This document shows, piece after piece, positions 905-56,418 of a DNA stretch of 64,000 nt. The notes under the pieces were generated by a model. That model was not told the DNA's origin. It ran no database searches and worked only from the letters and a program-made list of their open reading frames with translations. Position 1 is the stretch's first letter. The number at the start of each line of letters is the position of its first letter. Location: the NCBI GenBank assembly GCA_964035015.1, contig CAXIUP010000192.1, positions 447,501-511,500 on the forward strand, written 5' to 3'. The position numbers were made by a program, and so were the translations under genes. The DNA comes from Corallium rubrum. Taxonomy: Eukaryota > Cnidaria > Anthozoa > Scleralcyonacea > Coralliidae.

Positions 905-976
905 GTGAAGCCGAAAACGGCGAACTCACTGAAGTGGCTATTATAGCTGGGTATGAAGACAATCTTCAAACCAAAG
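905..976 (+). CDS. Exon, 24-residue repeat family, copy 1
   Basis: 72-nt phase-1 symmetric exon between TTTTTTTAG and GTAACC. It reads EAENGELTEVAIIAGY then EDNLQTK, with the split Gly codon shared with neighbouring exons. It is almost identical to 3156-3227 and clearly paralogous to 3880, 10634 and 11503. The acidic frame is preferred because all five copies stay open in it and it matches the phase of downstream exons. Being symmetric, it could be skipped or included without frame change. It is the first recognised exon; earlier ones must lie upstream of the window. The function of the repeat is unknown. Confidence 0.75.
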
Positions 977-999
977 GTAACCAAATATTCTGTCGGGAA

Positions 1000-1914
1000 A
1001 GAAATTAAATATAAAGGTTTTTGCATCAAAGCCCGTTTAAAATAAAATAAAATAAAATAATCAAATACGTAATGGAAACTAGGGGAAAATCTTAAGAAAT
1101 ACATGGATTTAAAATGTCAATATAAATAGATGTCGAAAAGACTGATGTATAAAAAGTATGACAGGTGCATAAACATTTTATATTTCAAAAGTCACAAGCT
1201 AGAAATCCCTATTAGATTGGATAAAAAAGAACAAAACGCTTACTGCCTCCTGGATTAATCCTTCACACTCAGTATAAATCACATACAGATGGGCAAGTGG
1301 AAATCATTCAAATATAATGTTAAACAGTAAAAACACTGTAACCATTCGTATTAAAAGGCCGCTATCGTCGCCATTTCTACATCCAGGGTTTCATGTTCGA
1401 AATCTTTTGGCGAAGGATATAGCACTTCACATGCCTTTATCTTTAAATTCACTAATCCAGTAAATTTCCCTGCGTAAAAAACAAAGAAATTCAGTGCTAA
1501 AGTACATCCATCGTCCACTAGACACCGGTTACCAACGGCGGCCGTGTCAAAAACTGTAAAAAAGTTCTAGGGCGAGTTCCTTTTGCCCTTTTAAATCCGC
1601 CATTTTGTGGCGACAATTTTTTGACTGACAGGAGATAGGAGCCCGCATTCTAGGTATATTATTTCTATGGTGTTAAGACACAGGCAGACATTGCGACATT
1701 TAATAAGAAAAACCAATTGCTATAAACAATTGATAAAAATATTTTTGAATGATTTAGCTTTAACAAAATTTTATTATGTCACATACTCTTTGAATAGATT
1801 ACATATGAATAAATTCGCCGACTGGTGGACCATGACTTGTGGGGTCCGGTGCTATAAAATTGCATATGACAGGAAAATTAAGTTAGTTTTATTTGAAAAA
1901 ACGATTAAAATGAT
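1000..1914. other. Intron, no gene seen; left copy of a duplicated segment
   Basis: No exon with supported splice sites is visible. The part from about 1667 to 1920 (containing GACATTGCGACATTTAATAA in one form and GACTGGTGGACCATGACTTG) is repeated near 3970-4230, so the local duplications include intron sequence beyond the exon units. Confidence 0.6.
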
Positions 1915-2385
1915 AAAGTAACATCTTCTACTGGTGTTAGTTTCCATGCTTTGTTTTTGAGATATTTCAGTTTGTTTGATACGTCAATGTCAAATGTTGT
2001 GACATACACGTGGGGTGCATGAAGACTTATATAGCGGAGTACGTATGTATATCTTTGATATGATCAAACAAGACTACTTGAAATCCTGCATGTTTGGTGT
2101 TATTAGAGAAGCACATCCGTCCGCTTTTTACAAATTAATCTTCTTTTAATAAGATAAAAGAAATATAGGCTTTCCCGTTAAGTCATTATGCACGTGTAGG
2201 TCACCAAATTCACATATCAAACAAACTAAAATATGTGAAGAACGAAGTATTGAAACCAAAAACTGCAAAATGTGATACTCTGTCATGTAGTTTGTGTATT
2301 TTTCCGAATAAGGTAAACTTAATTTTCGTGTCATATGCACTTGCACTTTTTGCTGACGACTCCAACAACAAGAACAAGAACAAGA

Positions 2386-3008
2386 ACAACAACAACAACA
2401 ACAACAACAACAACAACAACAACAACAACAACAACAACAACAACAACAACAACAACAACAACAACAACAACAACAACAACAACAACAACAACAACAACAA
2501 CAACAACAACAACAACAACAACAACAACAACAACAACAACAACAACAACAACAACAACGAAAACAACAACAACAACAACAACAACAACAACAACAACAAC
2601 AACAACAACAACAACAACAACAACAACAACAACAACAACAACAACAACAACAACAACAACAACAACAACAACAACAACAACAACAACAACAACAACAACA
2701 ACAACAACAACAACAACAACAACAACAACAACAACAACAACAACAACAACAACGAAAGCAGCAACAACAACAGCAACAACAACAACAACAACAACAACAA
2801 CGACGACAACAACAACAACAACAACAACAACAACGAAAACAAGAACAAGAACGAAAACAACAAAAACAACGAAAACAACAACAACAACAACAACAACAAC
2901 AACAACAACAACAACAACAACAACAACAACAACAACAACAACAACAACAACAACAACAACAACAACAACAACAACAACAACAACAACAACAACAACAACA
3001 ACAACAAC
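2386..3008. repeat. (CAA)n trinucleotide array with CGA interruptions
   Basis: About 620 bp of CAA units with scattered CGA or GAA variants, for example near 2557, 2753, 2800 and 2830-2875. It lies at the same place in its unit as the CGA array at 484-766. The poly-Asn, Thr, Leu and Val reading frames are repeat artefacts. Confidence 0.95.
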
Positions 3009-55235: not shown

Positions 55236-55471
55236 TACTCATGAACTAATAATCAATGTTAGGGTAGTACTAATTTGCGATGTGAATTTTTAGTGTGTTA
55301 AATTCCACTAGGCAAACTAATTTCCCCTTGACAAAATGAGAGTTTCGTGTAAACACGCGCGCAGTGGACACGCGTGTTTTTGCCTTACATGGAGCCGGAC
55401 GTTTGACCTCATCCAATCATAGGGCCAACTTTATGGAGGTATCGTTCCAGTCTTTATATAGAGTTCACTGT

Positions 55472-55545
55472 ACCCAGCCCTCCCGGGACATAGCAAAAAC
55501 CTGATCACTGCCCTTGACAAAATTATGTCCCGGGAGGGCTGGGTA
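55472..55545. repeat. Short palindrome
   Basis: ACCCAGCCCTCCCGGGACATA (55472-55492) is the exact inverse of TATGTCCCGGGAGGGCTGGGT (55525-55545), a 21-bp perfect inverted repeat with a 32-bp loop. Confidence 0.85.
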
Positions 55546-56200
55546 TAAACATTTGAACGGGAGGCGGGTTACTGCGCATGCCCGAAACCGTTGGTACATC
55601 GAAAATTGTGAAGGTCGCTTGAAAAAACTTTATTTATTTCTACGTTGAGCGGAGGGCAGGGCAATTTTGGGAGTCGATCAGTTGAAGGAACTATCTGACA
55701 TGGTGCTGGCCGAGTTTGGTGTCGATGGAAGCGTTTGGGTTGATTTTATGGCCCATCATTGTTGCGGACCTCTGTCGAATTTGCGAAATTCCTTCCGTAG
55801 TGTTAACTCACAGTGTGGATGAACCTTTCATGTGTCGCTTGTCGAGACCTCTTTGACAGCACGGCCAAATAAAATTGTCTGGCATAGCCGCTCAAGATAC
55901 AATAATAGAATTGGTCAGTCGCCTAGAACGGAATGTTGTGCGCCGACAAGCAGCCGTTAGTGGTAGCGGGTTTCCCGTCTCCCTAATAACGACTGCGGGG
56001 GGCAACGAAAAACCGGGGAAGTTCGAAACCGAATTAGAGGCCTTCGAATGACTTCTCAAAATCAAGTAGTATTTTAAACAAACGTCTCATGCTTGAAAAC
56101 CTAATCAAGTCCGAAGTTTGAGCTATGATTTTGAATTACCTTTCAAAATCATGTTTGAAGTCTTCCATTGTATTATTAACTTACATAATTTTGATTTCAG

Positions 56201-56418
56201 AGCCCTTTATACGCAGAGAATGGACAAAGAAAGAAAGAGAGGCTGTTCATAAGCACCTGGGTAGTTGCATTCGTAAAGGAACGGTTCCAGGCAAACAGGA
56301 ATGCGAGAAATGCAAGAGAAATTCAAAAGGTGCGCTGGACAGGCGAGAATGGAAGGCAATAAAATTCTTTGTTAAAAATCACATAGATAAAAGAAAAAAA
56401 GACCTACTGCAAAAATAA
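56201..56418 (+). CDS. Terminal exon: C-terminal domain and stop
   Basis: 218-nt exon after ACATAATTTTGATTTCAG; enters in phase 1 and ends in TAA. It reads about 72 residues: PFIRREWTKKEREAVHKHLG, then VPGKQECEKCKRNSKGALDR and REWKAIKFFVKNHIDKRKK. I recognise this as the C-terminal module of the zinc-finger/recombinase-like animal proteins (W-[ST]-x3-E start, PGK-x2-C-x2-C centre, W-K-x-[IV]-K-x-[FY]-V end). It may be a small helical zinc-binding domain; its role is unknown. An AATAAA lies at 56586-56591. Confidence 0.8.

What the first reader, a model, noticed from the sequence alone, without database searches (positions are those of the whole stretch)
905..56418. A 55-kb gene that joins reiterated phase-1 mini-exons to zinc fingers and a split tyrosine-recombinase domain
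Seen: 22 splice-bounded exons keep one frame over 3233 nt, with nearly all junctions in phase 1, and end in a recognisable C-terminal module. Known: tyrosine recombinases of the Crypton type have been domesticated in animals. Inferred: this is a host gene with a recombinase-derived DNA-binding or catalytic core and a disordered, acidic N-terminal half made by exon duplication. Such exon-shuffled tails on a recombinase-like protein are, as far as I know, undescribed.
Basis: partly seen in the sequence, partly recalled or inferred. Interest (0 to 1): 0.85.

Follow-up and report, generated by a model that had tools for sequence, protein, structure and literature searches.

The report
Recombinase-derived animal gene with repeated mini-exons
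A very long, probably real animal gene seems to join many small duplicated exons to zinc-finger-like motifs and a core resembling a DNA-cutting-and-rejoining enzyme, which may be a mobile-DNA enzyme turned host DNA-binding protein, but no RNA, structure or relatives could be obtained to prove it.

Summary
I recover 20 exons (905-56418) with canonical splice dinucleotides that join into one frame of 1,074 codons plus stop. All internal junctions are phase 1 except one phase-2 junction inside the recombinase-like domain. One exon scan gives 14 phase-1 candidates on the plus strand and none on the minus strand. Several mini-exons are duplicated with flanking intron. In three recent copy pairs, 6 of 8 differences are synonymous in the model frame and 0 of 8 in either other frame, so these mini-exons look translated and constrained.

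The tyrosine-recombinase reading is supported, not proven. Arg I, a basic hairpin, Arg II, His III and Tyr appear in order and spacing; an XerD-derived motif fits the core but 0 of 200,000 shuffles; 56 of 100,000 shuffles reach its ordered-block score. But Pfam, PHROGs, NCBIfam and PDB sequence searches gave no recombinase match, a plain HMM score is not significant, and the box II His is Thr. Crypton membership could not be settled. Best reading: a host nuclear gene with a recombinase-derived DNA-binding core and a flexible tail grown by tandem exon duplication.

The parts
905..976 (+). mini-exon, 24-codon unit, phase 1-1
   Evidence: copy of 3156-3227
3156..3227 (+). mini-exon, 24-codon unit, phase 1-1
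   Evidence: 4 syn and 1 nonsyn difference from 905-976
3880..3951 (+). mini-exon, diverged 24-codon unit, phase 1-1
10634..10705 (+). mini-exon, diverged 24-codon unit, phase 1-1
11503..11574 (+). mini-exon, diverged 24-codon unit, phase 1-1 (weak acceptor, 0.4)
11830..11904 (+). mini-exon, Ser/Asp-rich unit, phase 1-1
   Evidence: related to 17006-17095 with similar flanks
17006..17095 (+). mini-exon, Ser/Asp-rich unit, phase 1-1
20273..20350 (+). mini-exon, phase 1-1
20740..20793 (+). mini-exon, phase 1-1
21782..21874 (+). mini-exon, basic-then-acidic unit (copy 1a), phase 1-1
22132..22224 (+). mini-exon, basic-then-acidic unit (copy 1b), phase 1-1
23227..23319 (+). mini-exon (copy 2a of 21782-21874), phase 1-1
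   Evidence: 1 syn and 0 nonsyn difference
23576..23668 (+). mini-exon (copy 2b of 22132-22224), phase 1-1
   Evidence: 1 syn and 1 nonsyn difference
21300..24194 (+). tandem duplication (21300-22746 / 22746-24194, 97.8% identical) carrying the exon pair twice
26911..26946 (+). mini-exon, phase 1-1
27842..29087 (+). large exon, phase 1 in, phase 2 out: two zinc-finger-like motifs, a long region before the catalytic domain, and box I with Arg I
   Evidence: 415 open codons expected by chance with probability about 5e-13
27895..27951 (+). zinc-finger-like motif 1 (C-x2-C-x9-H-x4-H)
   Evidence: sequence; one search gives its start; Pfam zf-C2H2_2 only 13.5 bits, cut-off 26.9
28150..28209 (+). 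zinc-finger-like motif 2 (C-x2-C-x11-H-x3-C)
   Evidence: sequence; one search gives its start; Pfam zf-Di19 11.4 bits, cut-off 27.5
28966..28968 (+). codon of Arg I (residue 730)
38828..39306 (+). exon with the rest of the recombinase-like domain: basic hairpin, box II, box III; phase 2 in, phase 1 out
38853..38855 (+). codon of Lys 779 in the basic hairpin, the likeliest counterpart of the hairpin Lys
   Evidence: lined up with the conserved Lys; lines up Arg 777 (38847-38849) instead; coordinates
39075..39077 (+). codon of Thr at the box II His position (residue 853)
   Evidence: 83 of 83 comparison recombinases have His
39084..39086 (+). codon of Arg II (residue 856)
39162..39164 (+). codon of box III His (residue 882)
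39189..39191 (+). codon of the candidate nucleophile Tyr (residue 891), 8 residues after GH as in XerD
40128..40199 (+). acidic linker mini-exon, phase 1-1 (weak donor, 0.3)
44086..44151 (+). linker mini-exon, phase 1-1
46616..46696 (+). probable further mini-exon, phase 1-1, with a basic stretch like a nuclear localisation signal (by eye)
56201..56418 (+). last exon: 72-residue basic C-terminal module and stop codon
   Evidence: weak BEN-like match, 14.1 bits, cut-off 23.2
56586..56591 (+). first polyadenylation-signal-like hexamer after the stop

Best explanation
It is a single spliced host gene, not an element in its own right. It encodes a nuclear DNA-binding protein. Two zinc-finger-like motifs and a tyrosine-recombinase-derived core contact DNA; the core was once a mobile element's recombinase. 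A long, flexible, charged and serine-rich tail, and an acidic linker before a basic C-terminal module, tether or regulate it. Because all tail exons are symmetric (phase 1-1), tandem duplication or exon skipping changes the number of units without breaking the frame, so the tail can grow and vary while the core stays fixed. Shown: the frame, the phases, the duplications, the frame-specific constraint in three recent exon pairs. Supported: the recombinase-like core. Inferred: nuclear location, DNA binding as the main activity, flexibility of the tail, isoform variation, and the mobile-element origin. I think binding without full recombination is most likely, because the box II His is replaced, although Arg I, Arg II, His III and Tyr remain.
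For: One frame over 20 exons; strand contrast 14 against 0 and 27 against 6; frame-specific synonymous changes, p = 0.0014; exon-plus-intron duplications; introns of up to 9,740 nt holding satellite and retroelement remains, unlike a compact transposon gene (inference); ordered recombinase blocks, 56 of 100,000 whole-core and 15 of 100,000 domain shuffles reach the score, and the best of 170 unrelated ORFs reached 6.7 against 16.4; strict motif in 50 of 83 comparison recombinases, 0 of 393 other ORFs, 0 of 200,000 shuffles; local profile alignment above 300 of 300 shuffles.
Against: No RNA. No relatives found in 3 scans of viral contigs and 2 of prokaryote genomes, though these collections are the wrong place for an animal gene. 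No match to a recombinase model or structure in Pfam, PHROGs, NCBIfam or PDB sequences. The plain HMM score of the core (7.1 bits) is below that of its own reversal (7.6) and the best shuffle (9.1). The hhalign probability is only 4.3, and in global mode at least 8 of 300 shuffles score higher. Box I alone scores -7.8 in the block test. Three splice sites are weak. Zinc-finger matches are below cut-off. One older exon pair (905 against 3880) shows more nonsynonymous than synonymous change per site.
Confidence: 0.55

Rival explanations
1. An active or recently active tyrosine-recombinase transposon (Crypton-like) gene that has picked up introns and an upstream tail.
For: Arg I, Arg II, His III and Tyr are in place, unlike the human DUF3504 domains, all of which Kojima and Jurka 2011 (PMC3212892, passages read) say lost the Tyr and the second Arg.
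Against: The recombinase domain is split by a 9,740-nt intron and the unit spans about 55 kb; one copy of the core in the window; the paper says animal Cryptons have no C-terminal domain, whereas this has one; the box II His is Thr.
Confidence: 0.15
2. A catalytically competent host recombinase or topoisomerase-like enzyme that cuts and rejoins specific host sites.
For: Arg I, Arg II, His III and Tyr retained at XerD-like spacing; Lys 779 lines up with the conserved hairpin Lys.
Against: Box II His, present in 83 of 83 comparison sequences, is Thr; hhalign lines up Arg 777, not Lys, with the hairpin Lys. The comparison set is XerD-like (80 of its 83 rows were picked by a match to XerD) and not diverse.
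Confidence: 0.15
3. Two neighbouring genes: a repeat-tail gene upstream and a separate recombinase-domain gene starting near 27842. (This can be true together with some of the other readings, so the odds do not add up to one.)
For: The acceptor of exon 27842 is weak (-1.1) and a tRNA-like sequence lies 70 bases upstream.
Against: The joined frame is open and phase-matched on both sides of 27842, and symmetric phase-1 mini-exons also follow the core (40128, 44086, 46616).
Confidence: 0.12
4. The core is an unrelated helical DNA-binding protein, and the recombinase motifs are chance or convergence.
For: No curated model matches; plain HMM not significant; hhalign global mode not above shuffles.
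Against: Four blocks in order with the correct residues; local hhalign above 300 of 300 shuffles.
Confidence: 0.1

Closest known systems
Crypton-derived host genes with DUF3504 (WOC, ZMYM2/3/4, QRICH1, KCTD1, KIAA1958)
   Same: Spliced animal genes that combine zinc fingers or other domains with a tyrosine-recombinase-derived domain (PMC3212892, passages and section 8 read).
   Different: The human DUF3504 domains all lost the Tyr and second Arg (passage); here both remain and the box II His is lost. DUF3504 was not listed for this core. A tail of duplicated mini-exons is not mentioned in the passages I read.
Crypton-derived sequence at the bird ATF7IP locus
   Same: A recombinase domain inside a host gene region that, the authors say, may keep catalytic activity in some birds (PMC3212892, passage).
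   Different: It lies in an intron of ATF7IP with no transcript known to the authors for the fusion; here the domain is split over two exons of the model.
CryptonA elements of animals, including cnidarians
   Same: Tyrosine recombinase as the core protein.
   Different: Described as transposons encoding only a YR, without a C-terminal domain in animals; this is about 55 kb, multi-exon, with a C-terminal module.
XerD and related bacterial and phage recombinases
   Same: Box I, hairpin, box II and box III order, and Tyr 8 residues after the GH.
   Different: Very low overall similarity (16% identity in the hhalign alignment); no box II His; zinc-finger-like motifs and tails added.
ZnF-recombinase-like uncharacterised proteins of fish and corals (recalled from memory, no call)
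   Same: I recall predicted proteins with a similar order of zinc-finger-like motifs, a GHD..HR..YR motif and a basic C-terminal module.
   Different: Not tested: no eukaryote protein collection was available, and a search of papers for four such peptides found none.

Membership tests
Tyrosine recombinase superfamily | Arg I, Arg II and Tyr in order with box motifs | tested here: met
Tyrosine recombinase superfamily | His (or a substitute) at the first box II position | tested here: not met
   Thr at residue 853; 83 of 83 XerD-like comparison sequences have His. Other subfamilies use other residues (recalled), so this does not exclude the fold
Tyrosine recombinase superfamily | Hairpin Lys | tested here: inconclusive
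   Lys 779 lines up with the conserved Lys in the HMM and block alignments; hhalign puts Arg 777 there
Tyrosine recombinase superfamily | Significant profile match | tested here: inconclusive
   not by plain HMM; marginal by hhalign, local mode only; no curated model
Tyrosine recombinase superfamily | Fold | not testable with these tools
   structure prediction switched off
DUF3504 / Crypton-derived genes | Match to the DUF3504 profile | tested here: not met
   not listed up to E 10, though HMMER's filters drop most weak matches
CryptonA transposon | Multi-copy element with defined ends, YR only | tested here: inconclusive
   one copy of the core in the window, with a C-terminal module; genome-wide copy number not answered (12 genome-search runs)
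C2H2 zinc-finger protein | Match to a curated zinc-finger profile | tested here: inconclusive
   13.5 and 11.4 bits, below cut-offs; Cys/His spacing present
BEN-domain protein | Match to PF10523 | tested here: inconclusive
   14.1 bits over 30 residues, cut-off 23.2

The most novel reading that the evidence does not exclude
An animal host gene that still carries a working tyrosine-recombinase or topoisomerase-like active site, aimed at host DNA by its own zinc fingers and tuned by a modular tail whose length changes by exon duplication or skipping: a domesticated site-specific recombinase kept for catalysis rather than only for binding.
Probability: 0.13. Interest if true: 0.85.

Novelty: new variant of a known kind. 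Interest (0 to 1): 0.5.

Why it matters
The human DUF3504 genes, domesticated tyrosine recombinases, are reported to have lost the Tyr and second Arg; the bird ATF7IP sequence is the one possible exception named in the passages I read (PMC3212892). A host gene that keeps both, plus Arg I and His III, would make it directly testable whether an animal uses such chemistry on its own genome. The symmetric mini-exon tail is a clear case of tail growth by tandem exon duplication, with copies recent enough to measure constraint.

Tried and rejected
Single-exon and joined-core searches of Pfam, PHROGs, NCBIfam and PDB sequences gave no recombinase match. The Flavi_capsid, DUF1609, BEN and Bsg25A matches are sub-threshold and taken as chance. 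A plain HMM of 83 recombinases did not separate the core from shuffles. A lax motif was written one position off: it matched only 2 of 83 recombinases and 19 of 200,000 shuffles and missed the core, so I dropped it. The strict motif allowed K beside H after I had seen the core, so its specificity is partly post hoc. In one search, 0 of 4,000 shuffles reached the block score, but 56 of 100,000 did, which is the figure I use. One search had several exon ends off by one; one search corrects them. One search failed on a wrong frame. The first exon scan by similarity to four seeds found only two exons and was replaced. A stretch at 10105-10166 was rejected as an exon because its acidic frame is not phase 1. 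A giant animal mobile element like fungal Starships was considered and set aside: I saw no ends or cargo, but did not search for them systematically (one search is a listing of papers, passages of PMC6431247). The splice-site frequencies in the scans are generic values from memory.

Literature: 9 searches, most with capped listings. I read passages and section 8 of PMC3212892, passages of PMC6431247, and the abstract and outline of PMC10236652. I saw no title or abstract start on this architecture in those listings; this is not proof that none exists.
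Full report
Observation. I rebuilt the gene from the sequence. Nineteen exons with AG and GT borders between 905 and 56418 join into one open frame that ends at a stop at 56416-56418 (3,146 nt and 1,047 residues plus stop). All internal junctions are phase 1, except that exon 27842-29087 ends and exon 38828-39306 begins in phase 2. The start codon is not in the model and probably lies upstream of the window (inference).

Chance. With one set of thresholds (frequencies recalled, generic) the plus strand has 14 phase-1 to phase-1 candidate exons, 9 in phase 0 and 1 in phase 2; the minus strand has none in any phase. 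Of the 14, 9 are exact model exons, 4 are alternative ends of model exons and 1 (18241-18279) is outside the model. With looser thresholds and exons of 30-400 nt there are 27 on plus and 6 on minus. The 27 hold 14 of the 16 mini-exons of the 19-exon model; exons 11503 and 40128 miss the thresholds, and 46616 is the one I added. The large exons are open for 415 and 159 codons, expected by chance with probabilities of about 5e-13 and 2e-5 at the window's base composition.

Duplication and constraint. A 1.45-kb tandem duplication at 97.8% identity (21300-22746 against 22746-24194) carries one exon pair twice; exon 905 with its flanks is copied at 3156; other units are older copies. Over the three recent exon pairs there are 6 synonymous differences in 52.6 sites and 2 nonsynonymous in 196.4 sites (Fisher p = 0.0014). 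Read in the two other frames, the same 8 differences are 0 synonymous and 8 nonsynonymous each. This is the best evidence without RNA that these mini-exons are translated in the phase-1 frame. Older pairs show weaker constraint (for example 8.5 of 18.5 against 18.5 of 71.5 sites for 21782 against 22132), and one of them, 905 against 3880, shows the reverse (3.2 of 15.0 synonymous against 22.8 of 54.0 nonsynonymous).

The core. Residues in order are two zinc-finger-like motifs, a long region, then box I (Arg 730), a basic hairpin, box II (Thr 853 in place of His, Arg 856), box III (His 882) and Tyr 891, exactly 8 residues after the GH as in XerD. Lys 779 lines up with the conserved hairpin Lys in two alignments and Arg 777 in a third. 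The 9,740-nt intron falls between box I and the hairpin. To test this I gathered 83 recombinase sequences (XerD, FimB, FimE and 80 ORFs from viral contigs). Four ordered blocks scored 16.35 bits and chose these same places; 56 of 100,000 shuffles of the core and 15 of 100,000 of the domain reach that score; the best of 170 other ORFs of 200 residues or more scored 6.7, the reversed core 9.3, and the 78 recombinases of the set longer than 200 residues 112 or more. Box I alone scores -7.8, so it is placed by order and a few residues rather than by overall similarity. A motif modelled on XerD occurs in 50 of 83 recombinases, 0 of 393 other ORFs, 0 of 200,000 shuffles, and in the core. Local hhalign gives 21.9 against at most 20.5 in 300 shuffles, with P 0.0096 but probability 4.3; in global mode it gives 8.3, which at least 8 of 300 shuffles exceed. 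Against: the plain HMM score is 7.1 bits, the reversed core 7.6 and the best shuffle 9.1 among the 1,505 of 2,000 that were reported, and no curated recombinase model or PDB recombinase sequence matches. My judgement is that the fold assignment is likely but not proven. In 83 of 83 comparison sequences the box II residue is His; here it is Thr.

Surroundings. The introns hold remains of other elements: a DUF5641 match (E 3.1e-13, above cut-off) with weaker reverse transcriptase and protease matches on the minus strand at 17.8-20.1 kb, inverted pairs at 12.9-16.1 kb, and 188-bp satellite arrays at 32.2-36.1 kb. The core occurs once in the window. This suits an old host gene with growing introns better than a compact transposon (inference).

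Function. The most likely reading is a nuclear DNA-binding protein with a recombinase-derived core. The basic stretch of exon 46616 and the basic C-terminal module (32% K+R) fit nuclear work; the linker (exons 40128 and 44086) is acidic (30% D+E). The symmetric tail exons allow frame-preserving gain, loss or skipping. These functional steps are inference.

Comparison. Kojima and Jurka 2011 (PMC3212892; passages and section 8 read) describe animal Cryptons as elements without a C-terminal domain, and human DUF3504 domains that all lost the Tyr and the second Arg; [quoted passage not shown] This gene differs from the first two: it has a C-terminal module, keeps Tyr and both Arg, and lacks the box II His. 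Membership in either group is therefore not claimed. I recall similar uncharacterised proteins in fish and corals, but no call supports this.

Limits. The window's own genome could not be searched, structure prediction was off, and no eukaryote collection was available. The verdict is a probable gene with what may be a new combination of known parts.

Noticed in passing
window 12888-16145: Two adjacent inverted-repeat pairs (12888-13525 with 13948-14585 at 98.3%, 14583-15328 with 15434-16145 at 93.6%), one with a weak GIY-YIG match (E 0.0048, below cut-off), as in Penelope-like elements (recalled).
   Followed up: partly
window 17793-20136, minus strand: Remains of a retroelement: DUF5641 match above cut-off, reverse transcriptase and aspartyl protease matches below cut-off; like BEL/Pao elements (recalled).
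   Followed up: partly
window 32079-33422 and 34272-36205: 188-bp satellite in two arrays of opposite orientation, inside the intron that splits the recombinase-like domain.
   Followed up: no
window 27700-27771, minus strand: ARAGORN calls a tRNA-Ser (tga) 70 bases upstream of exon 27842; it may be a tRNA-derived repeat.
   Followed up: no
window 480-766, 2363-3018, 36314-37028, 53475-54865: Long simple arrays: about 96 copies of ACG and 219 of CAA just upstream of the two copies of the first mini-exon, a 5-base unit 143 times, an 8-base unit 174 times.
   Followed up: no
window 6739-6900 and 59086-59247: A dispersed repeat (alignment of 164, 87% identical), one copy in an intron of the gene model and one downstream of it.
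   Followed up: no
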